A stretch of DNA of 64,000 nucleotides from Chitinophagales bacterium (GTDB lineage Bacteria > Bacteroidota > Bacteroidia > Chitinophagales > JADIYW01), in assembly GCA_019694955.1 (NCBI GenBank), contig JAIBAX010000022.1:1-64000 (forward strand), written 5' to 3'. The notes under the pieces are model-generated. The model ran no database searches and had not been told where the DNA came from. It was given only the letters and a program-made list of their open reading frames with translations. The position numbers were made by a program, and so were the translations under genes. Shown here piece after piece: positions 25,302-64,000 of this stretch (positions are counted from its first letter, which is position 1; each line of letters begins with the position of its first letter).

Positions 25302-25310
25302 GGAAAAAAT

Positions 25311-25348
25311 CAACCTCGGAGGTTGTAGGGAATCAACCTCGAGGGTTG
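25311..25348. repeat. Paired CCTCGAGG palindromes, pair 2
   Basis: CAACCTCGGAGGTTG (25311-25325) and CAACCTCGAGGGTTG (25334-25348), 8 bases apart, upstream of hutU. Confidence 0.85.
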
Positions 25349-25443
25349 GGGTGGAATTTATCTTCTTTTTAGAAATGTCTTTTATTTTAATTAATTGATA
25401 ACCAATTTTTTAAATTAATATAATTGTTCTTTGAAGCAAAATA

Positions 25444-25481
25444 CAACCTCGGAGGTTGGCACAAATCAACCTCGAGGGTTG
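25444..25481. repeat. Paired CCTCGAGG palindromes, pair 3
   Basis: CAACCTCGGAGGTTG (25444-25458) and CAACCTCGAGGGTTG (25467-25481), with the same order and spacing (8 bases) as pair 2. Confidence 0.85.
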
Positions 25482-25499
25482 GCAACAAAATACCAAATT

Positions 25500-25563
25500 T
25501 TAACCGCAGAGACGCAATGTTATCTCTGTGTCCTTGGCGTATTCTTTGCGACTTTGCGGTTAA
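25500..25563. repeat. Inverted-repeat element with TAACCGCA ends
   Basis: TTAACCGCAGAGACGCAA at the left and TTTGCGACTTTGCGGTTAA at the right form imperfect inverted ends of a 64-base element. The 378-base gap between hutU and phnA holds this and two palindrome pairs, and no gene. Confidence 0.55.
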
Positions 25564-25650
25564 GAAATGACCGAAACTAATCTTTCCAACATTGCAATTT
25601 ATTGAATATCATTAATATATGATTTGTTCGTTCCCAAATTTTACGTTATA

Positions 25651-25998
25651 TCAAGCTTTTCTGACAAAAATTGACTTTAATGCCATAGCGCCAAATCCTT
25701 CGATTTTACAATCTATATTGTGGTCGCCGTCGGTGAGGCGGATATTTTTTACTTTTGTGCCAATCTTTACCGGTTTAGGAGAACCCTTCACGGGAAGGTC
25801 TTTGATAACGATGACTGTATCGCCATTTTGAAGTTCGTTGCCATTGGCATCCAATACTTTATCGCTGATATCTGCTGCATCTGGAGTAGGTTGTTCGTCA
25901 GGATTCCATTCATGGAAACACTCCGGACAAACCATCAGACCGTCATTAGGGTAAGCATATTCGCAATGGCACTTGGGGCATGTTGTATCTGTAGGCAT
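25651..25998 (-). CDS. PhnA/YjdM zinc-ribbon protein
   Basis: A 115-residue protein with an N-terminal zinc ribbon ([21 protein letters not shown], Cys pairs about residues 7-10 and 24-27) and a C-terminal SH3-like domain ([16 protein letters not shown]). This is the PhnA/YjdM family. Despite the old name, E. coli PhnA is not needed for phosphonate use; the role is unknown. Confidence 0.9.
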
Positions 25999-26039
25999 GA
26001 TATCTTTTTTGCGAAGATACGGATATTTTCGTGTTTAGC

Positions 26040-26077
26040 CAACCCTCGAGGTTGCCGAACGACAACCTCGAGGGTTG
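26040..26077. repeat. Paired CCTCGAGG palindromes, pair 4
   Basis: CAACCCTCGAGGTTG (26040-26054) and CAACCTCGAGGGTTG (26063-26077), again 8 bases apart. Located between phnA and the CRISPR operon. Confidence 0.85.
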
Positions 26078-26189
26078 GTCAAATTATACACATGAGAATT
26101 TAAAATTGTTAATAAAATAGATAATTAATTGTGAAATTATTAAACGGGACTCCCTACCTTCATATTGAAAATCTTGAAATATAAAAACT

Positions 26190-26765
26190 ATGTTAAAAAT
26201 CTTTCTCGATACAGAATTTACTGGATTAACCCAGCATACCGTACTGATTGCTATAGCCCTCGTTGTGGATGTTGGACATTATTTTTATGCAGAGAACACC
26301 GCGTTTAACCTCTCGAATGTAGAAGACGAACAGCAAAGAGCGTGGTTGGAGACGAATGTGATAGCTAATTTAGGGCAAGTTCCTTATTCTAATGATTTAA
26401 AGAAGATGTCTATTCAAGGTAATCCTCAACAGATTGCTATGGCATTACAGATTTGGTTAGAACAGTTTGGCATCAAAAAAGATGAAAGTGGTAATATCGT
26501 TCCCAATATTCAGGTTTGGGCAGACGTACCACATTATGATTGGGTGCTGTTTTGTGAGTTGTTTGAAGGGGCTTTAAAAATTCCAAAGCAGATTCATTGG
26601 AAATGTGTAGACTTATATAGTTATTTAGAAGGAAGAGGAATTAAAACCAACTCTATAGATGATTTGGCAACTGTTGCTAAATCTGTTAACACTACACTCT
26701 TTCGACACAATGCTTTGCATGATGCTATTTATGGACTAAAAGTATATGAAAAGTATGGACAGTAA
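26190..26765 (+). CDS. DEDDh 3'-5' exonuclease of the CRISPR signalling module
   Basis: A 191-residue RNase H-fold exonuclease. Active-site acids are D7 and E9 (FLDTEFTGL), D112 or D117 (ADVPHYDW), and the HxxxxD motif H173-D178 (HNALHD). This is the DEDDh pattern, close to Rv2179c-like 3'-5' exoribonucleases. It overlaps the CorA gene by 20 bases and heads the type III-B operon. In characterised CorA systems the neighbour is NrN (DHH phosphodiesterase) or a SAM-AMP lyase that destroys the signal; here the DEDDh enzyme holds that position, so it probably degrades SAM-AMP or trims RNA (inference). A good -7 box is not evident upstream. Confidence 0.85.
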   Translation: MLKIFLDTEFTGLTQHTVLIAIALVVDVGHYFYAENTAFNLSNVEDEQQRAWLETNVIANLGQVPYSNDLKKMSIQGNPQQIAMALQIWLEQFGIKKDESGNIVPNIQVWADVPHYDWVLFCELFEGALKIPKQIHWKCVDLYSYLEGRGIKTNSIDDLATVAKSVNTTLFRHNALHDAIYGLKVYEKYGQ

Positions 26766-28326
26766 AAAACCGATAAGTACGCATACATTTATGTTTCCGT
26801 TTAGATGGGATTTTATTTATAAAAATAAAGATAAAGAACAACTTACGTATTCTAAAAGGACAGACTTAAAAAAATTTGATGAAATATTTTCCAAGAAAGA
26901 CACTTTAAAAAGAACCTTTTTTGAAATCGGTGACAATCGTTCAAAATATAATGAGTTTACTTATTTTCATGTTTTTGCCAGAAAAGCTTTGTACGACATA
27001 AAAGCAACATCCTTTGATAGTAAAGAAGTGTTGTATTATGAACGAGACGGTTTAGATGAAGATTTTTTTGAAATAGCCATTAAGAATAAGAAAACGTATA
27101 GACTGAATATTCAGAGTGTTTGCCTACATGTATATAAAACGGGTGTGGGTATTGTAAGTTATAATCTTGAAAATTATGATCCATCAACAACACCCGATGA
27201 TGTCCTGAATATCAATGATTTTGGGAGAAGAATTTATCCTCAATTCATGGATAAATACAGAAGGATTGAACAAACGAAAGAAGCATTTCTTGCAGATAGA
27301 ATTAAAGGTAAATTAGGAGAGATTTTTTTTGAGGAAGACTTTTCGCAATATCAAACACATTACTTTAAACCGGAAGCCACCTTCTTACCACCTGACCATA
27401 TTAAAAAAGTATTTGGCTATGCTGATTTGGAACCTGAAAGTAAAGAACAAGATTTTGTATTTCGATATGATCACGAAAGAAAAGGAAATATCAGAATTAG
27501 CTTGGTTACGGATGATAGGATGTTTTTTATTTGTTATAATAGCCTGAATAGAATTTCTTCCTTCTGGAACGAAACCACCATAAAATTTGATCAGGAAGTC
27601 TATAATTACCAACTTTCAGACTACTGGTACAAGTTCATTTTTGGTGATACGGGTTACAAAACAATCCAGAATCAGTTAATGCAAATTAAACATCTGGAAC
27701 AGCATACTTATCAACGATGGACAGGCGAAAATTCATATTATGGAATAAGTAGAGATTCGTTAATTTGTTTGGCTGATTGGGATAAATTGCGAATAGATAT
27801 GCAAACCATGTATTATCAAATTGCCATTATCTGTTTGGTACAAAGAAGTTCGGTTCTGCGGTTTTCGTATGAAGTAAATAATATTACCACTCGTATGGAT
27901 GCGGGAATAAATGTAAATGCCGAAATCAAAGATTTATACAGGAATTATATCGAGTTTATCAATAAGCTTTATTTTAGGGAAGTTACCTCTCAGATACAAG
28001 GTATTGAAATGTATGCCAAATTGCAAGAAGTGATGAGCATAGAAAAAGAAGTGAAGGACTTGGATGATGAAATCAATGAGTTACATACCTATGTAAGCAT
28101 GGATGAGCAAGAAAAGTTGAGTAAAATAGCTACTTGGTTTTTACCATTTAGTATTGTAGCAGGCTTTTTAGGAATGAATATGTTGGGGGACTTTAGCTTC
28201 AATTTAGAAGACCAAAGTAGTTGTAATCTACCGTATTCTTGGATGTATCTTGGCATTGCTTTAGTGTTCAGTATGTTGCTGGCTTTCGTAATAGATAAAA
28301 TTATTAACCGTAAAAAAAGAAGATAA
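26746..28326 (+). CDS. CorA-like membrane effector of type III-B CRISPR
   Basis: A 526-residue protein with a large cytoplasmic domain (1-455) and a C-terminal CorA pore module: a long helix (IEKEVKDLDDEINELHTYVS), TM1 ending in the GMN signature at 476-478 (GFLGMNM) and TM2 (WMYLGIALVFSMLLAFVIDK) with a basic tail. Magnesium channels of the CorA family are usually 300-370 residues; the extra N-terminal region is typical of CRISPR-linked CorA, shown in Bacteroides fragilis to be triggered by SAM-AMP made by Cas10. The gene starts inside the exonuclease gene; an in-frame ATG at 26755 is an alternative start. Confidence 0.88.
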   Translation: MKSMDSKKPISTHTFMFPFRWDFIYKNKDKEQLTYSKRTDLKKFDEIFSKKDTLKRTFFEIGDNRSKYNEFTYFHVFARKALYDIKATSFDSKEVLYYERDGLDEDFFEIAIKNKKTYRLNIQSVCLHVYKTGVGIVSYNLENYDPSTTPDDVLNINDFGRRIYPQFMDKYRRIEQTKEAFLADRIKGKLGEIFFEEDFSQYQTHYFKPEATFLPPDHIKKVFGYADLEPESKEQDFVFRYDHERKGNIRISLVTDDRMFFICYNSLNRISSFWNETTIKFDQEVYNYQLSDYWYKFIFGDTGYKTIQNQLMQIKHLEQHTYQRWTGENSYYGISRDSLICLADWDKLRIDMQTMYYQIAIICLVQRSSVLRFSYEVNNITTRMDAGINVNAEIKDLYRNYIEFINKLYFREVTSQIQGIEMYAKLQEVMSIEKEVKDLDDEINELHTYVSMDEQEKLSKIATWFLPFSIVAGFLGMNMLGDFSFNLEDQSSCNLPYSWMYLGIALVFSMLLAFVIDKIINRKKRR

Positions 28327-28637: not shown

Positions 28638-29729
28638 ATGTACACCCTACAATTCACCCTAAAACAGCATACCCCCATCATCCACTTCCAACACGACCAA
28701 CACGGAGCCACCCTGCGCGCCACAGAAGTAAAACCCAAATTGGATAGGTTTATCTTGGAGAAGTTAGGGAAGGAAGATTATAATGAAGGAATAAAGAAAG
28801 CCAAAGAAGGTGGTTATTTAAAAGATGAGAATAAACCCGCTTTAACATACTCTCTGCAAATCACCTCTGATGCTTTTTATATGGAAAAAATACCTAAACT
28901 TTATCCATGCTATTTTGCCAATATGGGTGAGGAAACGCAAAAGAAGCATTTCGTTTTTGGCGACAAAATAAAGGTCAATTTACATTGTTCTGATAAGGAC
29001 GTTTATAATTTGTTGAGACAATATTTTAGCGACTTTTTGGTGTGTACTAATTTTGGCACACGGCAATCTAAAGGGTTTGGTTCATTCGCTGTTGAATCGA
29101 TGCAAGTGGCAGATTATGAGCGTGTTTTAAAACAAAACTTTGGAACAGTATATAAGATTTATTGGAATAATCGAAGTATATTCAAATTAGAAGAAGAGCA
29201 TAAATCCATTTTTTGGAAAATTGACAATGAATATAAAATGCTTAAAAGTGGCTTACCCAAAAAGAAGAGCAAACTGCGCGATTATTTTAACAATCTTCCA
29301 GGGTCTATAGAATGGGAAAAGCCTAGAATACAAATTGGTGTACAAAAACTTACAGGAGCGAGTTTGAAAATTGATAGAATCAATAATAATTACCATTATG
29401 TTAGAGCATTATTAGGGCTTGGTGAAAATTTTGAATTCCCAAAGAACAAAGCCATCATTAAACTGAATCATGTTGCTAAGACGGGTGAAGAAAAAATAGA
29501 ACGATTCCAATCTCCTTTGACGTTTAAAGTTTTTGAAAATATAATTTATCTTTTTGAGAACAAAAAAATTGACTTAAAGCATATTAAAGGAAAGGATTTT
29601 ACTTTTAAATATTTTAAGGATAAAATCGAAAATAAATCCTTGGAACATAGTTTACAAGTTCCCTTTGAATTTAATCTTAGTGAGTTTTTAGATCATTCAT
29701 TAAGAAATAGTAATTGGAAACAAATGTAA
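28638..29729 (+). CDS. cmr1: Cmr1, RAMP (Cas7-like) subunit
   Basis: A 363-residue RAMP protein. The N-terminus LQFTLKQHTPIIHFQHDQHG and the glycine-rich loop NFGTRQSKGFGSF (about residues 137-149) are RAMP features. Position as first cmr gene fits Cmr1, which closes the 3' end of the effector and helps bind target RNA. The sequence is divergent from archaeal Cmr1, so the exact subunit name rests partly on order. It starts 10 bases after the coiled-coil gene. Confidence 0.8.
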   Translation: MYTLQFTLKQHTPIIHFQHDQHGATLRATEVKPKLDRFILEKLGKEDYNEGIKKAKEGGYLKDENKPALTYSLQITSDAFYMEKIPKLYPCYFANMGEETQKKHFVFGDKIKVNLHCSDKDVYNLLRQYFSDFLVCTNFGTRQSKGFGSFAVESMQVADYERVLKQNFGTVYKIYWNNRSIFKLEEEHKSIFWKIDNEYKMLKSGLPKKKSKLRDYFNNLPGSIEWEKPRIQIGVQKLTGASLKIDRINNNYHYVRALLGLGENFEFPKNKAIIKLNHVAKTGEEKIERFQSPLTFKVFENIIYLFENKKIDLKHIKGKDFTFKYFKDKIENKSLEHSLQVPFEFNLSEFLDHSLRNSNWKQM

Positions 29730-29747
29730 AACCTAAAATTATATTCT

Positions 29748-30827
29748 ATGAATTCTAAATATTTAGAAAATAGTTATTTTTATGTTCCATTAATTGCTGC
29801 TTTGGCAATTCTTGCATTAATTTTTTTAATACTTTCAGAAAAAAAATTTCAAATATTTAGACCTAAATCTATTGATGATTTTGATTATAAGAAATTTTCG
29901 CTAGTAATTTTTATCTCAACAATTGTTATATTTTTAATCGTAGTAGTTTTTTATAAAGAATCTAGTATTACCGGTACAATTGGTGATACCATTGGTGGAA
30001 TATTTGGTCCGGCAGTTGGTTTAATTTCTGCAATTTTAGTTTATGTTACTTTCCAGAAACAAGTAGAGTCAAATGAACTTGTAAGAAATCAATTTAGGCA
30101 TGAAATCTTTGATAAATATATTTCCCAATTTAAAGACGCAATACAAAAATTAAATAATGATAAATCTTACTTAGATGAGCTATTTAAATATAAAGACTTA
30201 TTGGATCAAAGTTTGTTTTTCATAAATACTCAAACTCGTGAGATTCAAATAAATAGTGATTTTTATACACGTTTTAAAGATTATCAAGATAAATTATTAG
30301 ATTTTTTTGATATTGCACAAAATTATTATTTATTAGATGAGCTGATAGCTAATATAATAAATCAGAATAATAATTTCAGTAATGATTTAAGTCCTTCATA
30401 TCAAAGAGTTTATGAAATAAGTAAAGATAGAAATCTACATCAATTAATAAGTGATGCATATTTCTTTGTTCGAAATCATGAATATCCTTACTTGAATATA
30501 GAAGCTGTTGAGTCTGGTCGGTATAAAAGGCTAAGAAATATTCCGGTCATTCTTATTAATTCAGAACGCAATGGTATGTTTTCTGTTAATATGCTAAATA
30601 AATTAGGCAACGAATTTAGACCATTTACTTTAATCAAGTGTAGTACAACTATCAAAGAAAAAGAGTATTCAACAGAATTTAGGAAGACTCTTTTTTCGCA
30701 AGAGGAAACAGTAGAATTAAAAAATGTTACATGGGATTTTGATAAAATTTATACCCTTAACTGGCACATAAAAAACACCGCCACTAACGAAACATTTATT
30801 TACGAACAAGAATTTGAAATTGAATAG
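29748..30827 (+). CDS. Three-helix membrane protein inside the cmr operon
   Basis: A 359-residue protein with helices at about 11-30, 49-68 and 76-102, then a soluble C-terminal domain (about 105-359). The third helix is preceded by GDTIGGIFGPAVGLISAILV and followed by FQKQVES, a pattern recalling membrane proteins annotated as putative phage abortive-infection proteins (PutAbiC-like); that resemblance is from memory and weak. It is placed between cmr1 (18 bases away) and cmr2 (1 base away) in the same direction. The very AT-rich sequence suggests recent entry. No Cmr subunit is expected here, so it is a candidate accessory effector. Confidence 0.75.
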   Translation: MNSKYLENSYFYVPLIAALAILALIFLILSEKKFQIFRPKSIDDFDYKKFSLVIFISTIVIFLIVVVFYKESSITGTIGDTIGGIFGPAVGLISAILVYVTFQKQVESNELVRNQFRHEIFDKYISQFKDAIQKLNNDKSYLDELFKYKDLLDQSLFFINTQTREIQINSDFYTRFKDYQDKLLDFFDIAQNYYLLDELIANIINQNNNFSNDLSPSYQRVYEISKDRNLHQLISDAYFFVRNHEYPYLNIEAVESGRYKRLRNIPVILINSERNGMFSVNMLNKLGNEFRPFTLIKCSTTIKEKEYSTEFRKTLFSQEETVELKNVTWDFDKIYTLNWHIKNTATNETFIYEQEFEIE

Positions 30828-30828
30828 T

Positions 30829-32529
30829 ATGGGAACAAAAAAATATCTCGCTTTATCTATCGGACCTATCTTTGGTCTTATTAATCAATCTAAAACCGTT
30901 AGAGAACTTTGGGTGTCCTCTTTTATGTTTTCCGAGTTTACCCGATATTTTATTGAAGGAACATTAGACAAGGCTAAATGTCTTTCGCCTGTAAAATCGG
31001 TAGAACCAACCACTTGGGGTGCTGGTATCTATCCCGATAGAGTCTTTTGGGAATTAGAAGATGGATTTGATGAAAGAAATGTCATTGATTTTCAGGAAAA
31101 AGTTTTAGAAAAAATGGTCACTCATTCAAGCGACACCATTAGTCTAAATGAGTTTAAAAGTGCTTTGCACTTTTATTGGGTAATGGGCGAATGGAGCGAT
31201 GAAAAATTAGAAGAAAAGAATTTTATCTTCCGCTTGAACGATTTACTTGACACCGCCGAACTCACCCAAAAGTGGGAACATACAGACCAAAAAGATATTA
31301 TTACCAAATTGATTGCAAAAGGAAAGTTTCCAGATAACATTCTTAATCGACCCATTTATAAATGGAGAGATAGAAGGCTCGATGAAAAATTAATTCCATA
31401 CAAGATAGATGGAAAAAATAAAATTGGAAGATATCCTTCCATTGAAGAATTAACAACAACTCCGCTATATAGGTTTTTTCAAAAAAAGTATGATGATATT
31501 TATTCTGAAAATAGTGAAATACTAAAGAATGATGATGAGAAGAAAAATCAACCTGATAAGGATATTTCTGCCATGTCAAAATTTAAAAAAATTGCTGGCG
31601 AAAAATTCCTGAACCGACATAAATATATCTGTATCGTCAACTCTGATGGTGATGGAATCGGGGATATTTTAAAAAACCTTGATTATGCTAAGGATAATAG
31701 TGAACTTGTGTTATTCTCTAAAAGTTTGAATGAATTTTCCATTAATGCCTCTGAAATGGTATTTGAATATGGTGGCATCCCTATATATTCCGGTGGTGAT
31801 GACTTGCTATTTTTGGCTCCGGTAACTGGTAAAGATGATAAGAAAAATATATTCGACTTATTACATGATTTAAATACTATTTTTTCAAATGATACTTTCA
31901 AAGATGAAATTTTTAAAAATAAAGAAGTCTCCCTTTCTTTTGGATTGTCTATAACTTATTATAAACATCCGCTCAATGAAGCCCTCCAATCAGCACAACA
32001 TTTGATGAAGGACGTGGCAAAAAAACATGAAGAAAAAATTAATGGAAATGTGAAAGAGAAAAATGCTATCGCCTTCAAAATCCAAAAACATAGTGGGCAG
32101 TATTTTGAAACGACATTATGCATTGATTCTGAATTTTATAGGTTGTTTATGGAACTTTTAAACGAATACAAAACAGATGATAGCCGTTATCTTACCTCCT
32201 TAATGTTTAAAATGAATGAATTAAAAACAATTTTGGCATTAATCGGTCGTGATGAAGGCAAACTTAAAACTTTCTTCAAAAATAATTTTAATGAAAAAGT
32301 TCACGAAGAAAATAAGAAATTAACCGAAAAGATTCAGGAATTAATTGTGGAACAATTTTCACAGAATCGAGTAGATTTTGATTCGCCTAAAAAAGGAAAT
32401 TGTGACCTATCTTATGCTGATATTGACCCCCAAGATACTCAGCTAAAAACAAATATCGAGCGCATTTTTGCTTGCCTTAAATTTATCCATTTCCTAAGAT
32501 GTAAAGATAAAGACGATGACAACATATAA
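30829..32529 (+). CDS. cmr2: Cmr2/Cas10, cyclase without HD domain
   Basis: A 566-residue Cas10. The ATG at 30829 follows the upstream stop by 1 base. It starts directly with a palm-like domain (YLALSIGPIFGLINQSKTVR) and has no HD nuclease. The second palm holds YICIVNSDGDGIGDIL and the GGDD cyclase motif at about 322-325 (YSGGDDLLFLAP). The enzyme should therefore make a nucleotide signal when target RNA is bound and should not cut DNA itself. Given the CorA neighbour, the likely product is SAM-AMP rather than cyclic oligoadenylate (inference). Its 3' end overlaps cmr3 by 14 bases. Confidence 0.93.
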   Translation: MGTKKYLALSIGPIFGLINQSKTVRELWVSSFMFSEFTRYFIEGTLDKAKCLSPVKSVEPTTWGAGIYPDRVFWELEDGFDERNVIDFQEKVLEKMVTHSSDTISLNEFKSALHFYWVMGEWSDEKLEEKNFIFRLNDLLDTAELTQKWEHTDQKDIITKLIAKGKFPDNILNRPIYKWRDRRLDEKLIPYKIDGKNKIGRYPSIEELTTTPLYRFFQKKYDDIYSENSEILKNDDEKKNQPDKDISAMSKFKKIAGEKFLNRHKYICIVNSDGDGIGDILKNLDYAKDNSELVLFSKSLNEFSINASEMVFEYGGIPIYSGGDDLLFLAPVTGKDDKKNIFDLLHDLNTIFSNDTFKDEIFKNKEVSLSFGLSITYYKHPLNEALQSAQHLMKDVAKKHEEKINGNVKEKNAIAFKIQKHSGQYFETTLCIDSEFYRLFMELLNEYKTDDSRYLTSLMFKMNELKTILALIGRDEGKLKTFFKNNFNEKVHEENKKLTEKIQELIVEQFSQNRVDFDSPKKGNCDLSYADIDPQDTQLKTNIERIFACLKFIHFLRCKDKDDDNI

Positions 32530-33646
32530 AATTTTACTCCAACCCTTAGATGTATATTTCTTTGGCGGAGCCGAAACCTTTAATCATTCCAACAGAAAAC
32601 ATGCTTATAAAGAAAAGCAAAATTACTTTGTGCGGTCGCAGCTTTTTCCACAACAAACCACCATTTTGGGTATGTTGCGTTATCAATTGCTGGCACAAAA
32701 CAATGAACTTGTAACAAAGAACTATCCAAGACTCTTAAAACCTGCTTCGGATAGAATCGGAGTGGAGGGTTTTAAGGTAGAGAATAATGTTGATAAATAT
32801 GGCGTAATCTCTAAAATCTCACCGATATTTTTAAGCAATGGAACGATTGATTTAATTCCGCATACGAAGGATTTTGCTTGGAAAGATAAAGAAAACAAAG
32901 AAATTCAACAAATCAAACCCGAATTTGGTAATGTATATCAGCGGGTGATGTTTAATGGTAAATGGCAAACTGCTCCCGATACCCTTAATACTTTTAAGGT
33001 AAAACATGGTCAGCCTGATTTATTGGTGTCGCACGATGGAACAGAAGTGCATTTCAGGGATTTTAAAAAGAATTTCAAGGATGCGGTTACATTAAACAAG
33101 CAACCTGTTAAAAATGGCATTTTTGTGGAAGTAACTAAAATTGGTATCAACAAAGAAAAGCGGATTAAAAATGACTTTAAAGCTGATAGCAACAAAGAAA
33201 AACCGAAAGAAGCCTTTTTTAAGCAAACCAAATACCGTTTGATAGACGGTTGGTCTTTTGCCTTTTATGCAGATTTGGACGAAAAAATAGAAGACACCAT
33301 CGTGTGCATGGGCGGCGACCGCTCACCTTTTAAATTAACTTCCAAGGTTGTTTCAGAAGGAGAAAATTTTGATAACAAGTTTAAAGATGCATACAAACAT
33401 TTGCCAGATAATGCCATCGCTTGTTACTCGGATGCCTTTGTAAAATATGACGACGTGATGAACAATTGTACTTTTATGATAAATGATAGCTTGCCTTTTG
33501 CTTCCATTGCCGATAATTATAAATCATATATAAGGTCGGATAATTATGTGGTTTTAAAAAGAGGTTCGGTATTATATGGTGCTAAAGATTTTCCAAAGGA
33601 AGTTAATTTTGAAACAATCGGTTACAATACATTTTATAAAAAATAA
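32516..33646 (+). CDS. cmr3: Cmr3, Cas5-like RAMP subunit
   Basis: A 376-residue RAMP protein beginning YKILLQPLDVYFFGGAETF, the typical Cmr3 start; the following block RSQLFPQQTTILGMLRYQLL also fits. Cmr3 binds the crRNA 5' tag and contacts Cas10. A glycine-rich segment (VCMGGDRSPFKLTS) lies in the second half. It overlaps cmr2 by 14 bases and precedes cmr4 by 11 bases. Confidence 0.92.
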   Translation: MTTYKILLQPLDVYFFGGAETFNHSNRKHAYKEKQNYFVRSQLFPQQTTILGMLRYQLLAQNNELVTKNYPRLLKPASDRIGVEGFKVENNVDKYGVISKISPIFLSNGTIDLIPHTKDFAWKDKENKEIQQIKPEFGNVYQRVMFNGKWQTAPDTLNTFKVKHGQPDLLVSHDGTEVHFRDFKKNFKDAVTLNKQPVKNGIFVEVTKIGINKEKRIKNDFKADSNKEKPKEAFFKQTKYRLIDGWSFAFYADLDEKIEDTIVCMGGDRSPFKLTSKVVSEGENFDNKFKDAYKHLPDNAIACYSDAFVKYDDVMNNCTFMINDSLPFASIADNYKSYIRSDNYVVLKRGSVLYGAKDFPKEVNFETIGYNTFYKK

Positions 33647-33657
33647 AAACGCAAGAT

Positions 33658-34470
33658 ATGAAAAATGCAAAAACGGATATTTATCTAATTGAATGCCTCA
33701 CCAATATGCATGTAGGCAGTGGCGATAACAACTATGGCGACATCGACAACCTGGTGCAGCGAGACCCAGTGAATAATTACCCCTGTATTTATAGTTCATC
33801 ATTAAAGGGTGCTATTAAAGAATTTTGGAATGACAATGAATTTGAAGAGGTGGATGAAATTTTTGGTTCAGGTAGCGATGATAATAACTCAAATGACGAA
33901 CAGAAGGAAACTGAAAAAGAGCATAATAAAAGTAATAAGGGAGTACCCGGCAAGGTGAAATTTTTCCAAGCCAATTTATTGGCTATTCCTGTTCAAGGAG
34001 GTTGTGCCAAAGAGGAGTCACCACCTTATTATTTAGCCACTCAGTCATCCCATTTAGAGGAGTTGGCTACATTTTATCAATATTTCGGAGTGCAATTATC
34101 TTGGAATAAATTAGACCTAGAAAATGAAATCGATATTAATTATGAAGTAAAAGGAAGAAAGATTAAAGAAGCGATTGCAGGATTAACTTCACTATATAAT
34201 GTCCATGAAATAGATTTTAAAGAAATTATCGAAAAATTGCCCGTTATTGCTCGAAATAAGTTAGAAAATGGTGAGTCTGCCAATTTGTGGTATGAAGAAA
34301 TTGTTCCTAGAAAAACATATTTTGTTTTTGCTGTTTCTGCATCTGAGAATGATAAAGCACTTTTAACAACCTTAAATAGTAATTTGCATGGCAAAGTAAT
34401 CCAAATAGGTGCCAATGCTTCCGTTGGTTATGGTTATTGTAAAATCTCTAATATATTGTCCCATGAATAA
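33658..34470 (+). CDS. cmr4: Cmr4, backbone RNase (Cas7)
   Basis: A 270-residue RAMP subunit that forms the effector backbone and cuts target RNA every 6 bases. The N-terminus LTNMHVGSGDNNYGDIDNLV keeps the Asp (D30) that corresponds to the catalytic Asp of Cmr4 (VDLPIQR motif), so target RNA cleavage should work. SSLKGAIKEF and GANASVGYGYCK are the RAMP lid and glycine-rich loop. An Asn/Glu-rich insertion (about 73-96) is unusual. Its stop overlaps the cmr5 start. Confidence 0.93.
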   Translation: MKNAKTDIYLIECLTNMHVGSGDNNYGDIDNLVQRDPVNNYPCIYSSSLKGAIKEFWNDNEFEEVDEIFGSGSDDNNSNDEQKETEKEHNKSNKGVPGKVKFFQANLLAIPVQGGCAKEESPPYYLATQSSHLEELATFYQYFGVQLSWNKLDLENEIDINYEVKGRKIKEAIAGLTSLYNVHEIDFKEIIEKLPVIARNKLENGESANLWYEEIVPRKTYFVFAVSASENDKALLTTLNSNLHGKVIQIGANASVGYGYCKISNILSHE

Positions 34471-34843
34471 GCAGGTCGAAAAATTGATGCCGTTGGCGTA
34501 CGCTTTGTTAGAAAAGGAGCAAAAATCAAAACAGTTCAACAAAGAACTGAAGGGATATATTGCCAGCTTTGGACCATCATTAAGGATGTCGGGACTATTG
34601 GCAACGATGGCTTTTTACCTGAAAGATAAAGAGGATAAAAATGATAAATACAAAAGAAGTGATGTATTGGAATGGCTTTTTTGTATGATTGGCGAGGAAA
34701 AAGCCGATAAAAAATTTTTTGCCATTGCCAATCAAGAATCGGACACAAAAGAATTAGCGAACAAACTCCGAAACGCATATATCGCCTTAAAATTGGTGTT
34801 TCGAACATTTTCAGTAGAGGAAAATAATCTTTCAAATCATTAA
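34463..34843 (+). CDS. cmr5: Cmr5, small subunit
   Basis: A 126-residue helical protein starting at the ATG at 34463 (MNKQVEKLMPLAYALLEKEQ), which overlaps the cmr4 stop; the upstream extension to 34409 is cmr4 read in another frame. Cmr5 (Cas11 role) packs along the Cmr4 backbone. Size and helical character fit. Confidence 0.88.
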   Translation: MNKQVEKLMPLAYALLEKEQKSKQFNKELKGYIASFGPSLRMSGLLATMAFYLKDKEDKNDKYKRSDVLEWLFCMIGEEKADKKFFAIANQESDTKELANKLRNAYIALKLVFRTFSVEENNLSNH

Positions 34844-34853
34844 AACTATAATC

Positions 34854-36086
34854 ATGGGTGCAAATACTGCTTATTTGTTTCAGCGCAATTACTACAATAA
34901 GATAGATGATGATACAAAACTGGATTGGAAAGCTGTCAGGAAAGGAAAAAATGCAAGCGATCAGGAGAAAAAGGATATCGAGAAATTTTTCAAGAAAAAG
35001 AATGATACTATTTTACAAACGGACATTATTCCTATTGAAAATGAAGTATATAAAAAAGACTTTTCCCTCCAACTGCTATATCCTGGATTATTGTATGGTT
35101 CGGGTATAACGCACGAAGTAGGGGCTGTGGGTGAGTTTAAAATCGGGTTTCAATTAGACCATACTACCGGAATGCCCATCATTGCAGGTTCGTCCGTCAA
35201 AGGTATGTTGCGAGCCTATTTTCCTCAATTTCTGAATCAAATGACAGAAGACCAAGAAATAAAGACCATACAACCCTTCCTAACTGTTAGTAAAAAGCAC
35301 TACAACAATGATGAGACCATCCTCAAAAATAAAAAGAAACACGCTTTGTATATCGACCATATTCTCAAGCAAACGAAAAGAAATGATTATGAACAATTGC
35401 TAGATAAGATAGAAGATGGAGAAGATCAAGATTTTGCGCCCATTTATCAAAAAATTCACCAACTTGAATACCATATCTTTGAAGGCGTAAATAACATGGG
35501 TAAGCGAAATTCTATTTATAAAACGGATATCTTCTTTGATGCTATTCCTTCCGTTGCAAAAGATGGTAAATTATTTGGTGATGATGCCATCACGCCTCAT
35601 GGTACAGATATTACCAAAAATCCACTTCCTCTCTTGTTTTTAAAAGTAATGCCTAATGTGGTGTATGATTTTCATTTTAAACTAATTGTAACCGACCTAG
35701 GAAATGAAAAAATTACCGCAGAAGCTAAAATGAAATTGTTTGAAACTTTGATTGTAACCCATGGCGTAGGTGCAAAAACCAATGTCGGTTATGGACAGTT
35801 TAAAAGCTATAATGCTTCAAAGTCGGTAAGTGCAAATCTGCCAAAAACGGAAATAGATTTTAAATTCCACTTATTCCTTAAAAAACGAACGCAACTAACA
35901 GGAGTAGTTGAATCGGTGGATGATGCAAAAGTAGAAATGACGGTAGAAACTGTTAAAGGCAATTTTACCGTATATAAAAAACGCGACAAATTGTCCAATG
36001 TTGTAAGTGGAGATAGAGTCATCATTCAGATAGAACAAGATTATATACCGGGAAGCGGTCTTTCATTTTCTGCCAAAAAACAATAA
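34854..36086 (+). CDS. cmr6: Cmr6, RAMP subunit with C-terminal extension
   Basis: A 410-residue RAMP. LLYGSGITHEVGAVGEFKIG and MPIIAGSSVKGMLRAYFPQ are Cmr6 signatures, and GVGAKTNVGYGQF near residue 311 is the final glycine-rich loop that usually ends the protein. About 80 more residues follow (HLFLKKRTQLTGVVESVDDA onward) with an alternating strand pattern like an OB or S1-type fold. It starts 10 bases after cmr5 and is 2 bases from cas6. Confidence 0.9.
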   Translation: MGANTAYLFQRNYYNKIDDDTKLDWKAVRKGKNASDQEKKDIEKFFKKKNDTILQTDIIPIENEVYKKDFSLQLLYPGLLYGSGITHEVGAVGEFKIGFQLDHTTGMPIIAGSSVKGMLRAYFPQFLNQMTEDQEIKTIQPFLTVSKKHYNNDETILKNKKKHALYIDHILKQTKRNDYEQLLDKIEDGEDQDFAPIYQKIHQLEYHIFEGVNNMGKRNSIYKTDIFFDAIPSVAKDGKLFGDDAITPHGTDITKNPLPLLFLKVMPNVVYDFHFKLIVTDLGNEKITAEAKMKLFETLIVTHGVGAKTNVGYGQFKSYNASKSVSANLPKTEIDFKFHLFLKKRTQLTGVVESVDDAKVEMTVETVKGNFTVYKKRDKLSNVVSGDRVIIQIEQDYIPGSGLSFSAKKQ

Positions 36087-36088
36087 AC

Positions 36089-36718
36089 ATGCAAACACTC
36101 ACTGCCATCTTCCACCAACCATTGCGACCGTCACAAATCGATGATTTTAGGAAAGCTGTTACTACTTTTACCCATAACGACCTTTTCCATAACCACGATG
36201 AGCAGTCCACCATCAGTCGATATCCGCTCATCCATTATCGCGTACATGGTGGAAAAGCCGCCATATTTGCTGTCAATGAGGGTGCGCAAGCGTGTCAGGA
36301 TTTGTTGAAGAATAAGGAGTTTGTAGAAACCTTTGGCGGCATGTATAGTCAGGATACAGACCGGAATTTCGAACCGCACATCCTTGCTGAACCCTGTAAA
36401 TATAGAGTTTACCACTATATTCCTTTTAATCCGGAAACCTATCCGGTGTATAAACAATTACCCGATATGAAGGCACGGATAGAGCTGCTGGAAAGCCAGT
36501 TGCACAAACATATCAATAGCATGCTAAGTACCCTTCACCAACCGCAAGACGGCATCACTATCAGCATCTACGACCTTGATAGAGTAGAAAAGGTAAAGGC
36601 GTATGGTGCCCATTTGATGGCCTTTGATTTGGTCATAAACGCCAACATACTGCTTCCCGACAGAATCGCCATTGGCAGAAAAATGGCGTTAGGCTATGGA
36701 TGGATGTATAAAATGTAA
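36089..36718 (+). CDS. cas6: Cas6 crRNA-processing endonuclease
   Basis: A 209-residue Cas6, which cuts the repeat RNA to make crRNAs. The C-terminal glycine-rich loop RIAIGRKMALGYGWMYKM (192-209) is typical of Cas6 proteins of Bacteroidota type III-B. N-terminal His residues in the first ferredoxin fold (e.g. in STISRYPLIHYRVHGGKA) are candidates for catalysis. It ends the cmr operon. Confidence 0.85.
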   Translation: MQTLTAIFHQPLRPSQIDDFRKAVTTFTHNDLFHNHDEQSTISRYPLIHYRVHGGKAAIFAVNEGAQACQDLLKNKEFVETFGGMYSQDTDRNFEPHILAEPCKYRVYHYIPFNPETYPVYKQLPDMKARIELLESQLHKHINSMLSTLHQPQDGITISIYDLDRVEKVKAYGAHLMAFDLVINANILLPDRIAIGRKMALGYGWMYKM

Positions 36719-36782
36719 AACCACAGCAAGTTCTTTGACGTATTGATTGAAACCGCAATTCTGACATTAGAGTTATTACTGT

Positions 36783-36827
36783 AAACCATAACAACATCTT
36801 TGAAAATCAAGGAAAAGGTTCAATTCC
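36783..36827 (+). repeat. Degenerate copy of the RT gene start
   Basis: 36 of 45 bases match 36936-36980, which carries the ATG and first codons of the reverse transcriptase gene. Here ATG has become ATA and the frame stops after about 24 codons (SLKIKEKVQF still readable). The rest of the 222-base gap 36719-36940 shows nothing I can name; it could hold the promoter of the adaptation operon. Confidence 0.75.
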
Positions 36828-36940
36828 ATATTCCCGTATTTCCGTGTCCCACGGAAACCTGAGTAGTTACTTTGTCCTTCCGCAGATTATTTATTTCAAT
36901 TGTGCTTAAAAATGTGTATCTTGAATGAAAACTGCAAACC

Positions 36941-37978
36941 ATGATGTCATCTTTGAAAATCAAGCAACAAGTTCAATCCTTACTACGCTCAAAAAGTGTA
37001 GATGACCTGGCAAAGGTGCTAAAGTTTACCGCTGAAAACATCACCCTTCTCTCTATTTCAAAGAAGTATGAAGTGTATAAAATCCCAAAAAAGGACGGTA
37101 GTTTCAGAATGATTGAAGATCCATATGCACCATTAAAAGCATTGCAAAAAAGATTAAACGAAGTGTTACAATGTTATTATGCCACTATCCGCCCTTCTCC
37201 GGTATATGGATTCTGCATTTCCACATCACCTGATAAACCCCTCAATATTAAAACAAATGCTCAAAGACATGTTGGCAATCCTTGGATGATTAATATCGAC
37301 TTAAAAGACTTCTTTCATCATATCTCTGAAAAAAGAGTGCAAAACATTTTTTCGACCAACTTTAAACATTGGGATAAAAATTTAGTAAAAACAATGGCTG
37401 CTATTGCTACCTACAAACACCGATTACCAATGGGCGCACCCACTTCTCCAGTGTTATCTAACCTAGCCTGTATAAATCTTGACCACGAATTGCAAAATTT
37501 TACCAAAAATAGCGGTATCACCTTTACAAGATTTGCGGATGATTTTACCTTTTCGGCGCACCACGAACTCAATAAGAATGATATAGATATCATCTTTTCT
37601 GCACTACACCATTATGGGTTTTTAGAAAATCAGAAGAAGGTGGTAATATATCCTCCAGACGACATTAAAATAGTAACAGGTTTAGTGGTAGGCAATGATG
37701 ATGTTTCACTACCAAAAGATTATATCCCACAGTTGTTGATTGAAATTGACCGACTAAAAAATATTCTTAGCGTAGAAAAGAGATATCAAACTGGGATGTC
37801 TAACAAAAAATTGCAATTGTTCAAACAAGAAATAGAAGGGAAAATAAACTTTGCTACTACCATTTTAGGCAATCAACATGTTGATATACAACATATAGAA
37901 CAAGCTTATATAGATGCAACCGCACCTGAAGATGATTATTTATCTATGAACTGGTTAGAAATGCCTTACAGCTTATAA
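36941..37978 (+). CDS. Retron-like reverse transcriptase of the adaptation module
   Basis: A 345-residue RT with fingers-palm only. YEVYKIPKKDGSFRMIEDP is motif 1, PSPVYGF lies at 85-91, motif A is NIDLKDFFHHI (D120), LPMGAPTSPVLSNL is motif B, FADD at 198-201 is the catalytic motif C, and VTGLVV (245-250) is the VTG element of retron RTs. No maturase, HNH or Cas1 fusion. cas1 follows 9 bases downstream. RTs beside cas1 allow spacer capture from RNA; most known ones resemble group II intron RTs, so this retron-like form is less usual. Confidence 0.9.
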   Translation: MMSSLKIKQQVQSLLRSKSVDDLAKVLKFTAENITLLSISKKYEVYKIPKKDGSFRMIEDPYAPLKALQKRLNEVLQCYYATIRPSPVYGFCISTSPDKPLNIKTNAQRHVGNPWMINIDLKDFFHHISEKRVQNIFSTNFKHWDKNLVKTMAAIATYKHRLPMGAPTSPVLSNLACINLDHELQNFTKNSGITFTRFADDFTFSAHHELNKNDIDIIFSALHHYGFLENQKKVVIYPPDDIKIVTGLVVGNDDVSLPKDYIPQLLIEIDRLKNILSVEKRYQTGMSNKKLQLFKQEIEGKINFATTILGNQHVDIQHIEQAYIDATAPEDDYLSMNWLEMPYSL

Positions 37979-37987
37979 ATAATAAAT

Positions 37988-38965
37988 ATGATAATAGTTA
38001 TAGAAGAATACGGTATAAATATTGAAAAGGACAACTATTCTTTCAAGATTTCCGGAGCAATAGGGACTCGAGTAATTAGTCCGTACAAAGTTACTGCTTT
38101 TCATATTTACAAACCCTGTCAAATATCTTCTCCAGCCATACTATTGGCAGCGGAGTTTGAAATTCCTATTTTGTTTTTAGATAGTACAGCTCAAGTGAAA
38201 TCCATGCTTTGGCAACCCGGTTTTGGAAGTATCTCAAGAATCAGAAAACAACAGTATTTCTTTTGTCAGAGTGAAGAAGGTGTAATATGGGTATATGCTA
38301 ATTTTTTATTTAAACTCAATGGCCAATTGAACAATTTGCAGGCTTTTGAGAAGCATAATGCCGAGATTTTTCAAGCCATACAACCATATAAGGAAAAAAT
38401 ATATCACCTTCAAAAAAAATGGAGTGAAATACCGGAAGATAGCTCGTTAACTAAAACAGTACAATATGAGGCATATAGTTCAAAAATTTATTGGCAGGGA
38501 ATAAAAAGTATCCTCCCAACATCATTTAAGTTTGAAAAAAGAAGTAAGCATCCTGCAAAGGATATGTTTAATGTATTGCTTAATTATGGCTATGGAATGT
38601 TGTACAACCAAATATATTTAGCCAGTATAACAGCAGGACTAGACCCATATTTAGGAATTTTACATAGGGATAATTATAAAACTCCGTCATTTACTTTTGA
38701 TGCCATTGAACCCTTTAGACCTTGGGTGGATAGGTTGGTAGTACAAATTGCCTTAGAACAATATATGGATGAATCCCATTTTGACAAAGGTGAAAATGAA
38801 GTAATACTCAACAAAAAAGGAAAATCAATATTTATACCAAAGATGATAGAGATGTTGCATGCATATACTTATTTTAATCAAAAGAGAGTGAAAAGAAAAG
38901 ACCAAATACAATATTATTTAACCAAGCTAGCAAAAGACTTGCTAAAATCGCATAAGGATGCTTAA
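37988..38965 (+). CDS. cas1: Cas1 integrase
   Basis: A 325-residue Cas1 that integrates new spacers. The metal ligands are E161 (VQYEAYSSKIYW), H226 (YLGILHRDNY) and D238/E241 (FDAIEPFRPW). The N-terminal beta domain is YGINIEKDNYSFKISG. It overlaps cas2 by 8 bases and follows the RT gene by 9 bases. Confidence 0.95.
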   Translation: MIIVIEEYGINIEKDNYSFKISGAIGTRVISPYKVTAFHIYKPCQISSPAILLAAEFEIPILFLDSTAQVKSMLWQPGFGSISRIRKQQYFFCQSEEGVIWVYANFLFKLNGQLNNLQAFEKHNAEIFQAIQPYKEKIYHLQKKWSEIPEDSSLTKTVQYEAYSSKIYWQGIKSILPTSFKFEKRSKHPAKDMFNVLLNYGYGMLYNQIYLASITAGLDPYLGILHRDNYKTPSFTFDAIEPFRPWVDRLVVQIALEQYMDESHFDKGENEVILNKKGKSIFIPKMIEMLHAYTYFNQKRVKRKDQIQYYLTKLAKDLLKSHKDA

Positions 38966-39254
38966 GATAATTACCTATGATATCAGTGAAAATAGAAAAC
39001 GAACAAAAATAGCTAAATATTTAGTTAGAATGGGGTTAACAAGAGTGCAGTATAGTATTTTTGTAGGGGATTTGCCATTGTTTAGATGGAATCAAATCAT
39101 TTTAAAACTTTATTCTTATTTGGAAGAAATTGATGAAACCGACAAATTATATGTACAAGAGATTAGTAAAGAAAGTTTTAAAAATATGGTTATCTTTGGA
39201 GAATCACCCAATTTTGAAGAAATTTTAAACGAAAAAAAAGTATGGATTATTTGA
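38958..39254 (+). CDS. cas2: Cas2
   Basis: A 98-residue ferredoxin-fold protein, MLKIITYDISENRKRTKIAK, with the conserved D8 after the first strand and a GLTRVQYSIFVGDL second strand. It forms the Cas1-Cas2 integration complex. 70 bases separate it from the first CRISPR repeat. Confidence 0.95.
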   Translation: MLKIITYDISENRKRTKIAKYLVRMGLTRVQYSIFVGDLPLFRWNQIILKLYSYLEEIDETDKLYVQEISKESFKNMVIFGESPNFEEILNEKKVWII

Positions 39255-39324: not shown

Positions 39325-40646
39325 GTTAGAGATACCATTTAAAGAATATAGGATTGCGACTTTTAAATTTTCCATAAGACAAAATGTGATCTTTTTTGTT
39401 AGAGATACCATTTAAAGAATATAGGATTGCGACACCTGATTGGCAAACCACTCGTTTGACCAAAGTATGAGTTAGAGATACCATTTAAAGAATATAGGAT
39501 TGCGACTGACTAACCCTCTGCGTGTTAATAGTTCTATTCTACTCGTTAGAGATACCATTTAAAGAATATAGGATTGCGACTTTTCAACATTGCTTGAATT
39601 TCTATGTTTAATTTTGTTAGAGATACCATTTAAAGAATATAGGATTGCGACTACCTTTACCGCTGACATTTGCAGGCTTGAACTTATCGTTAGAGATACC
39701 ATTTAAAGAATATAGGATTGCGACCGATTACTTCAACAGATGAAGTCTCTATTGTCATGTTAGAGATACCATTTAAAGAATATAGGATTGCGACAATACG
39801 TATACTTTCATTATATTCAAAGATTGTGTTAGAGATACCATTTAAAGAATATAGGATTGCGACACATATCATGAATGCCATAACCCAAATTTTTATTAGT
39901 TAGAGATACCATTTAAAGAATATAGGATTGCGACTCTGGCATTTTTACTTCGATAGGCAATTCATTCATATGTTAGAGATACCATTTAAAGAATATAGGA
40001 TTGCGACTCAGAGGATACAACTTCCTTATGTGTAAACATTACAGTTAGAGATACCATTTAAAGAATATAGGATTGCGACTTCTTTGGAATTGTGTCTATA
40101 ACATTGTTGTTGTGGGTTAGAGATACCATTTAAAGAATATAGGATTGCGACATTTATTGATTTAATTTTCCATAAAACGGATTCCCCTGTTAGAGATACC
40201 ATTTAAAGAATATAGGATTGCGACTGCTATGCATCAACTCAAAGAAATCTAATGTATATAAAGTTAGAGATACCATTTAAAGAATATAGGATTGCGACGC
40301 GTACAGTGCCCAACATACTGTCCCCGTTAATAGAGGTTAGAGATACCATTTAAAGAATATAGGATTGCGACCCACTTCTGCGTAGAAATAGAGATTAAAT
40401 CGTTCTGCGTTAGAGATACCATTTAAAGAATATAGGATTGCGGCTTGAAAGTGAGAAAAGTCTAACTACTCACTACTAATTACTCAATACTAAAATTCAG
40501 AGATACGATGTCGCATTACGTACTACGAAAAACGCACGACGCTCTCAGAGATACCATTTAAAGAATATAGGATTGCGACATTGAAAACAATAGAGAAATG
40601 ATTACTGTGAGTTAGAGATACCATTTAAAGAATATAGGATTGCGAC
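39325..40646 (+). CRISPR. Type III-B CRISPR array, 18 repeats
   Basis: 36-base repeats starting GTTAGAGATACC and ending ATAGGATTGCGAC. Starts of the first sixteen: 39325, 39398, 39471, 39545, 39616, 39689, 39759, 39828, 39899, 39972, 40044, 40116, 40189, 40263, 40336, 40409. Then a 99-base interval, a repeat with altered first bases at 40544 (CTCAGAG) and a last one at 40611. Spacers are 31-38 bases, all different. The repeat at 40409 ends GCGGC instead of GCGAC. Degeneracy at the distal end puts the leader at the cas2 side. The last 8 bases of the repeat, ATTGCGAC, would form the crRNA 5' tag and resemble the AUUGAAA(C/G) tags of Cmr systems. Confidence 0.97.
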
Positions 40647-59309: not shown

Positions 59310-59711
59310 ACGCCGGCAAATAGTGGAGAATTTTTTGTTGATATTACCATCACAGGAGGTTGGCCTGAAGAAAATAACTCAGGTACATATACACTCATTT
59401 CCGCTGGTTTCAATTCTCCTATAACAACATATTCTTATGGTAATCCATTAGTAGATATTCCGGTGACCTTTGTAAATGGGAGCCTTCTTAGCATATCTGT
59501 GACCGACGATGGCAATTCTAGCAATACGTCTTGCAATGCATGCGCTTCTATAAATTATACAACCCCACATATATGTTGTTCCGGGATTCAGACATTGGTT
59601 CAAAACTATAGCTGTTTCCCTGCTGATACAGGTGTAATCATTGATTCCTTAACTTCATCTGGCGGTTGTGACAGCATTGTAACAACGATTACAACGTTAA
59701 TCAACGCTTCT

Positions 59712-60743
59712 TTCACAACTGTAAACGCTACCAGTTGCAACCCTGCCGACACAGGAACGGTGATAAATACGATTACCGGTGGTGCTGCAAATGGTTGTGA
59801 CAGCATTATAACAACAATTACAACTTTAATCAATCCATCTTTCACAACGGTAAACGCTACCAGTTGTAACCCTGCCGACACGGGAACGGTGGTAAATACG
59901 ATTACTGGTGGAGCAGCAAATGGCTGTGACAGCATTATAACGACCATTACAACTTTAATAAACGCTTCATTCACAACGGTAAACGCTACCAGTTGTAACC
60001 CTGCCGACACGGGAACGGTGGTAAATACGATTACTGGTGGAGCAGCAAACGGCTGTGACAGCATTATAACGACCATTATAACATTAATCAATCCATCTTT
60101 CACAACTGTAAACGCTAGCAGTTGCAACCCTGCCGACACGGGAACGGTTGTAAATACGATTACTGGCGGTGCAGCAAACGGCTGTGACAGCATTATAACA
60201 ACCATTACAACATTAATCAATCCATCTTTCACAACGGTAAATACTACCAGTTGCAACCCTGCCGACACGGGAACGGTAGTAAATACGATTAATGGTGGAG
60301 CAGCAAACGGTTGTGACAGCATTGTAACGACGATTACAACATTAATCAACGCTTCTTTCACAACGGTAAATGCTACCAGTTGCAACCCTGCCGACACAGG
60401 AACTGTGGTAAATACGATTACTGGTGGAGCAGCAAACGGTTGTGACAGCATTGTAACGACGATTACAACATTAATCAACGCTTCTTTCACAACGGTAAAT
60501 GCTACCAGTTGCAACCCTGCCGACACAGGAACAGTAGTAAATACCATTACAGGCGGTGCAGCAAATGGTTGTGACAGCATTATAACAACGATTACAACTT
60601 TAATCAACGCTTCATTCACAACTGTAAACGCTACCAGTTGCAACCCTGCCGACACGGGAACAGTAGTAAATACCATTACAGGCGGTGCAGCAAATGGCTG
60701 TGACAGCATTGTAACGACCATTACAACTTTAATAACTTGTGTC
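59712..60743 (+). repeat. Eight tandem 129-bp repeats (43 residues)
   Basis: Repeat starts, taken at TTCACAAC, are at 59712, 59841, 59970, 60099, 60228, 60357, 60486 and 60615. Each encodes SFTTVNATSCNPADTGTVVN and ITGGAANGCDSI plus a Thr-rich strand, with two Cys. Differences are mostly at third codon positions. Confidence 0.95.
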
Positions 60744-63700: not shown

Positions 63701-64000
63701 CCCTGCCCAAACAACCTATACTTTCTGTGACGGATCAACCGCTGATAACGGCACACTGGGTACTTATGAAATCGACGACAACGGTTGTGTGACCTATGTT
63801 GCCGGAAATACACCGGGAGATGAGAACGAAATCTGTGTTATCGCCTGTGATGCCAATTTGGGTATCTGCGATACTACTATCATCATCATCACTGTTGTTC
63901 CGCCAACCGTCACACCGGATACCATCTACGATACCGTTCCGGTGAACGACACCGTGGTAGTATGTATAAACTTAGAACCGACATTCGACCCTGCCCAAAC
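60741..64000 (+). repeat. Tandem 288-bp repeats (96 residues), at least 11 complete
   Basis: Starts at 60741, 61029, 61317, 61605, 61893, 62181, 62469, 62757, 63045, 63333, 63621 and 63909 (cut by the window edge). Each unit encodes VTPDTIYDTVPVND, an EPTFDPAQTTYTFCDGST strand, YEIDDNGCVTYVAGNTPGDE and ICVIACDANLGICDTTIIII. They resemble bacterial Ig-like adhesin repeats. Confidence 0.97.

What the first reader, a model, noticed from the sequence alone, without database searches (positions are those of the whole stretch)
36941..39254. Stand-alone retron-like RT with cas1-cas2
The RT has retron-type features (PSPVYGF, VTGLVV) and is not fused to Cas1. Most characterised RT-Cas1 pairs use group II intron-like RTs. 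The arrangement suggests RNA-derived spacers written by a different RT lineage.
Basis: partly seen in the sequence, partly recalled or inferred. Interest (0 to 1): 0.65.

Follow-up and report, generated by a model that had tools for sequence, protein, structure and literature searches.

The report
Retron-type reverse transcriptase in CRISPR operon
A bacterial CRISPR immune locus carries a separate reverse transcriptase of the retron type directly in front of its spacer-inserting genes; it belongs to a lineage noted in print but untested, and probably turns invader RNA into DNA memories.

Summary
Window 36941-37978 encodes an intact, unfused RT with retron motifs (NAQRH, VTG) and FADD, 9 nt upstream of cas1, inside a complete III-B (Cmr) locus with an 18-repeat array. 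By profile, fold and tree the RT is retron-type, not group II-like. All CRISPR-linked retron-like RTs tested (39, nearly all Bacteroidota) form one clade (UFBoot 98, SH-aLRT 100) nested among retrons; group II RTs and RT-Cas1 fusions lie elsewhere (100/100). Three points beyond the literature read here: (1) the structured upstream RNA of retrons is missing (median fold z -0.74 against -2.66 in other retron-type RTs; the RT often overlaps cas6 or cas2); (2) the RT>cas1 branch has a C-terminal tail ending W-x(2-5)-Y; (3) RT and Cas1 distances correlate at r=0.88. Spacers in these arrays are T-rich, as in group II RT-Cas1 arrays but not in RT-free arrays; effector type confounds this. The lineage is already known: Toro et al. 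name Haliscomenobacter hydrossis, whose plasmid RT falls in this clade. RNA-templated spacer writing is the likeliest function and is untested. Verdict: real, a new member of a known but uncharacterised kind.

The parts
36941..37978 (+). Stand-alone retron-type reverse transcriptase, 345 aa; NAQRH (residues 106-110), FADD (198-201), VTG (245-247); C-terminal tail with W338 and Y343
37988..38965 (+). cas1, 325 aa; E161, H226 and D238 invariant across 79 Cas1 sequences
38958..39254 (+). cas2, 98 aa
39255..39324 (+). Presumed leader between cas2 and the first repeat
   Evidence: position and sequence; inference
39325..40646 (+). CRISPR array, 18 repeats (GTTAGAGATACCATTTAAAGAATATAGGATTGCGAC), spacers mostly 31-38 nt, degenerate at the far end
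36089..36718 (+). cas6, immediately upstream of the RT
28638..36086 (+). III-B effector genes: Cmr1 28638-29729, Cas10 30814-32529, Cmr3 32516-33646, Cmr4 33658-34470, Cmr5-position ORF 34409-34843, Cmr6 34854-36086
26746..28326 (+). CorA-like membrane effector
36719..36940 (+). 222-nt gap upstream of the RT without unusual RNA structure (z -0.80); holds a decayed 47-nt copy of the RT start at 36778-36824

Best explanation
This is an adaptation module in which a retron-type RT, recruited once in Bacteroidota and separated from its own msr/msd RNA, acts in trans as the polymerase of Cas1-Cas2. Proposed steps: the RT copies short RNA fragments (and probably ssDNA) into cDNA; the RNA/cDNA or DNA product is handed to Cas1-Cas2; it is inserted at the leader end of the array; and the III-B Cmr complex uses the resulting crRNAs against complementary RNA. 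Shown here: retron ancestry, intact catalytic motifs in RT and Cas1, operon coupling, shared inheritance with Cas1, absence of a structured upstream RNA, and the lineage-specific tail. Inferred: RNA as spacer source, direct RT-Cas1 contact through the tail, and how cDNA synthesis is primed.
For: RT is 9 nt from cas1 in the window and next to cas1 or cas2 in about 40 relatives. One clade, 98/100. Cas1 tree shows the same A and B branches; distance correlation r=0.88, 0 of 2000 permutations as high. Purifying selection on RT, dN/dS 0.07 in the pair with unsaturated sites. Catalytic aspartates invariant in 28 aligned RTs; Cas1 E161, H226, D238 invariant. Tail W..Y in 29 of 32 of branch A, 0 of 9 of branch B, 2 of 60 others. 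T-rich spacers (T>A 260 against A>T 123, p 2e-12) as in group II RT-Cas1 arrays (137 against 56, p 5e-9) but not in RT-free arrays (143 against 129). Group II-like RT-Cas1 fusions acquire spacers from RNA by experiment (PMC11014452).
Against: No spacer could be matched to any RNA or DNA source. The spacer skew is confounded with effector type, is not significant in branch B or in the window alone, and depends on array orientation guessed from repeat ends. RTs also copy DNA. Some sister Cas1 modules do without any RT.
Confidence: 0.6

Rival explanations
1. The RT is an adaptation polymerase but works mainly on DNA: it fills in or makes double-stranded the DNA prespacers, as proposed for CRISPR-associated prim-pols, and RNA is not an important spacer source.
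For: Two RT-free sister modules (L193, L195) have a 344-355 aa protein between cas1 and cas2 that looks by eye like a prim-pol; CAPP_B prim-pols are found in Bacteroidetes type III operons (PMC8211822). Several branch-A modules also carry a PDDEXK (YhcG/DUF1016) nuclease gene between cas1 and cas2, which would suit DNA-end processing.
Against: Retron RTs naturally copy RNA (established knowledge). Spacer composition resembles that of group II RT-Cas1 arrays. All effectors identified beside these modules are type III, which reads RNA.
Confidence: 0.25
2. It is still a retron: the RT uses a ncRNA encoded elsewhere and makes msDNA that guards or regulates the CRISPR locus.
For: NAxxH and VTG motifs typical of retrons are kept. 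A few loci have structured upstream sequence (L050 z -4.84, L070 z -3.22).
Against: The upstream 220 nt are unstructured in most members and often no intergenic space exists. No Rfam match near the window RT. Shared history is with Cas1.
Confidence: 0.1
3. The RT is a recently inserted retron neighbour without a role in CRISPR.
For: PMC5541045 suggested recent retrotransposition for the single retron-like case then known.
Against: About 40 loci with conserved order, one clade and shared history with Cas1.
Confidence: 0.05

Closest known systems
Retron-like CRISPR-associated RT lineage (Toro et al. 2017-2019; Haliscomenobacter hydrossis)
   Same: Stand-alone retron-like RT next to cas genes in Bacteroidota. 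The RT of H. hydrossis plasmid NC_015512 (L066), and the chromosomal locus L044 of the same genome G182, fall in the same clade.
   Different: Reported as a minor lineage; in the papers I could read, no account of ncRNA loss, the tail, or Cas1 co-inheritance. Toro 2019 itself was not held, so I cannot exclude that it describes some of this.
Group II intron-like RT-Cas1 fusions (Marinomonas mediterranea MMB-1 and others)
   Same: RT with Cas1-Cas2 in type III loci; T-rich spacers in the Bacteroidota examples.
   Different: Those are fused, of group II origin, and lack a canonical thumb (PMC11014452). This RT is free and has the helical segment after the palm (residues 261-309 in the model) that corresponds to a retron thumb.
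Retrons (Ec67, Ec86)
   Same: Closest sequence and fold.
   Different: No structured upstream RNA in most members and no retron effector gene; the partner is Cas1-Cas2.
CRISPR-associated primase-polymerases (CAPP)
   Same: A polymerase encoded within the cas1-cas2 adaptation module.
   Different: Primase fold rather than RT; apparently present in sister modules that have no RT.

Membership tests
Retron-like CRISPR-associated RT lineage | RT branches within retron RTs, outside group II-like RTs | tested here: met
Retron-like CRISPR-associated RT lineage | Located with cas1-cas2 and an array, unfused | tested here: met
Retron-like CRISPR-associated RT lineage | Same clade as the published H. hydrossis example | tested here: met
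   L066 in the clade and matched to H. hydrossis plasmid NC_015512; which of the two H. hydrossis RTs is the published GI was not checked
Canonical retron | RT motifs NAxxH and VTG | tested here: met
Canonical retron | Structured msr-msd ncRNA beside the RT | tested here: not met
   Window z -0.80; branch A median -0.74 against -2.66 in other retron-type RTs; no Rfam match
Canonical retron | msDNA product | not testable with these tools
   needs experiment
Group II-like RT-Cas1 | RT in the group II-related clade | tested here: not met
   group II-like RTs 100/100 as a separate side
Group II-like RT-Cas1 | RT fused to Cas1 | tested here: not met
   separate ORFs with a 9-nt gap
RNA-spacer-acquiring RT systems | RT-dependent spacer uptake from RNA | not testable with these tools
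   only indirect composition evidence

The most novel reading that the evidence does not exclude
A retron RT separated from its own RNA has become a general trans-acting RNA-to-spacer polymerase that docks on Cas1 through a new C-terminal W..Y tail, so that RNA-based immune memory evolved a second time, independently of group II introns. The invariant tail tyrosine might even be a protein-priming residue.
Probability: 0.4. Interest if true: 0.75.

Novelty: new member of a known kind. Interest (0 to 1): 0.5.

Why it matters
The RT systems described as acquiring RNA spacers in the papers read here use group II-like RT-Cas1 fusions. A retron-type RT doing the same work unfused would show convergent evolution of RNA memory, would raise how a retron RT can prime without its dedicated RNA, and would offer a small separable RT for molecular recording. 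The clade has about 40 members here, including cultured species such as Phaeodactylibacter xiamenensis and Lutibacter maritimus, so the long-open question of what retron-like CRISPR RTs do can be tested directly.

Tried and rejected
Single-protein scan of genome contigs found nothing; an alignment query worked. Rfam search: no retron family. Spacer targets: none in the own genome beyond the arrays, in the phage collection, or in viral contigs for five spacers. The upstream gap was tested as a relic of a CRISPR repeat or leader: the repeat is no better than shuffles (390 of 500 as high); the leader is weak (30 of 500 as high). Open-frame strand bias of spacers was weak, so composition skew was used instead. 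A T preference at spacer position 3 in several branch-A arrays is not clear in the window and was left unexplained. Toro et al. 2019 is not held. The hypothesis of a chance neighbour was rejected on conservation of order and co-inheritance.

Full report
Observation. The reported genes are there. The RT at 36941-37978 is a complete 345-aa protein, 9 nt before cas1 (37988-38965), which overlaps cas2 (38958-39254). Upstream lie CorA, Cmr1, Cas10, Cmr3, Cmr4, a Cmr5-position ORF, Cmr6 and Cas6. Downstream is an 18-repeat array whose leader-side repeats are identical and whose far end is degenerate. A second array with the same repeat (12 copies) lies on contig C57 of the same genome.

Identity of the RT. 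PADLOC ranks retron RTs of types XI and XII first and NCBIfam ranks retron Ec67 first, below its cut-off. A profile of the family scores retron Ec67 at 196 bits and Ec86 at 194, against 65 for the solved Cas6-RT-Cas1. The AlphaFold model (pLDDT 93.3, pTM 0.87) matches retron structures in the first 18 Foldseek rows; group II RTs begin at rank 19.

Relatives. In 398 genomes of the same order and in genome contigs I found two arrangements. Branch A is RT>cas1>cas2, as in the window. Branch B is cas1>cas2>RT. In a tree of 73 RTs the 39 CRISPR-linked retron-like RTs form one clade (UFBoot 98, SH-aLRT 100), while group II RTs and RT-Cas1 fusions are separate (100/100). The larger 115-row quick tree agrees, with 45 rows at SH-aLRT 100. 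This fits a single recruitment. One member, L083, sits on a short contig without visible cas genes and was assigned by the tree. The Cas1 tree has the same A and B branches, and RT and Cas1 distances correlate at r=0.88 over 36 loci, with no permutation of 2000 as high. dN/dS in the pair with unsaturated sites (L032/L034) is 0.07 for RT and 0.06 for Cas1; the other pairs are near saturation and only suggest constraint.

What changed after recruitment. First, retrons need a structured ncRNA, usually beside the RT. The 220 nt upstream of the RT fold better than shuffles in other retron-type RTs (median z -2.66, 23 of 57 below -3) but not in branch A (median -0.74, 1 of 32) or in the window (-0.80). 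In many loci the RT overlaps or abuts cas6 or cas2, leaving no room. This tests only the upstream position; a ncRNA in trans is not excluded. Second, branch A gained a C-terminal tail ending W-x(2-5)-Y: 29 of 32, with L035 and L045 having it followed by extra residues and L081 grouping with B in the tree; 0 of 9 in B and 2 of 60 elsewhere. The tail is low-confidence in the single-chain model, which fits a segment that folds on a partner. I infer, but have not shown, that it contacts Cas1.

Spacers. Oriented by repeat end, branch A spacers are T-rich (AT skew -0.11; T>A 260 against A>T 123, p 2e-12). Group II RT-Cas1 arrays show the same (-0.12; 137 against 56, p 5e-9), and RT-free arrays do not (-0.03; 143 against 129). 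The window's own arrays go the same way (skew -0.13) but are too few to be significant. T-rich crRNAs fit targeting of A-rich mRNA. By their repeats the RT-free set is largely not type III, so effector selection could cause this. No protospacers were found.

Known or new. Toro et al. noted a retron-like CRISPR RT in Haliscomenobacter hydrossis (PMC5541045, PMC6013744). PMC11014452 states that CRISPR RTs arose on at least three occasions, one small clade being retron-related. L066 is from H. hydrossis plasmid NC_015512 and lies in this clade. The window is therefore a new member of a known, uncharacterised kind. What this analysis adds to the papers I could read is the clade structure, RNA loss, tail, Cas1 co-inheritance and spacer comparison.

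Mechanism. Most likely (0.6) the RT supplies cDNA of RNA fragments to Cas1-Cas2. A DNA-only prespacer role (0.25) remains serious because sister Cas1 modules carry what looks like a prim-pol in the same region (CAPP in PMC8211822). A working retron (0.1) and a chance neighbour (0.05) are disfavoured.

Noticed in passing
L037 11101-12069, L038 5020-6063, L042 11454-12410, L044 11327-12205, L071 8172-9056, L072 2802-3686, L075 8247-9131, L105 8079-8948: A PDDEXK nuclease gene (YhcG_C/DUF1016) sits between cas1 and cas2 in a subclade of branch A (Pfam-confirmed in five of them); it could play a Cas4-like prespacer-trimming role. Two papers in the library hold both 'DUF1016' and 'CRISPR' and neither is about CRISPR.
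   Followed up: partly
window 36778-36824 and 36931-36977: A 47-nt, 83% repeat: a decayed copy of the RT start (start codon lost) upstream of the real one, perhaps a trace of an RT gene duplication or replacement.
   Followed up: partly
window 29748-30827: A 359-aa membrane-like protein between Cmr1 and Cas10 with no Pfam or NCBIfam match; possibly a second type III effector besides CorA.
   Followed up: no
L192 6459-7511; L193 and L195 between cas1 and cas2: RT-free sister Cas1 modules carry either the YhcG nuclease (L192) or a 344-355 aa protein that looks by eye like a prim-pol (L193, L195).
   Followed up: partly
L047, L049, L091 arrays upstream of RT and downstream of cas2: RT-cas1-cas2 cassettes flanked on both sides by arrays with near-identical repeats.
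   Followed up: no
branch A arrays (e.g. L038, L044, L047): T is enriched at the third base of spacers in several branch-A arrays, not clearly in the window; possibly an acquisition or priming signature.
   Followed up: partly
L002 / L169 (same genome, contig C6): A second RT (about 503-528 aa) in the same genome groups with ordinary retron RTs in the tree.
   Followed up: no
L168 1-1000 (same genome, contig C5): A second Cas1 (333 aa) of a different lineage with no RT neighbour in the stretch read.
   Followed up: no
window 59663-64000: Long tandem repeats of period 129 and 288 nt, probably a large repetitive protein gene.
   Followed up: no
window 25305-26078: Dispersed short palindromic repeats (AACCTCGAGGGTTGG type) upstream of CorA.
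   Followed up: no
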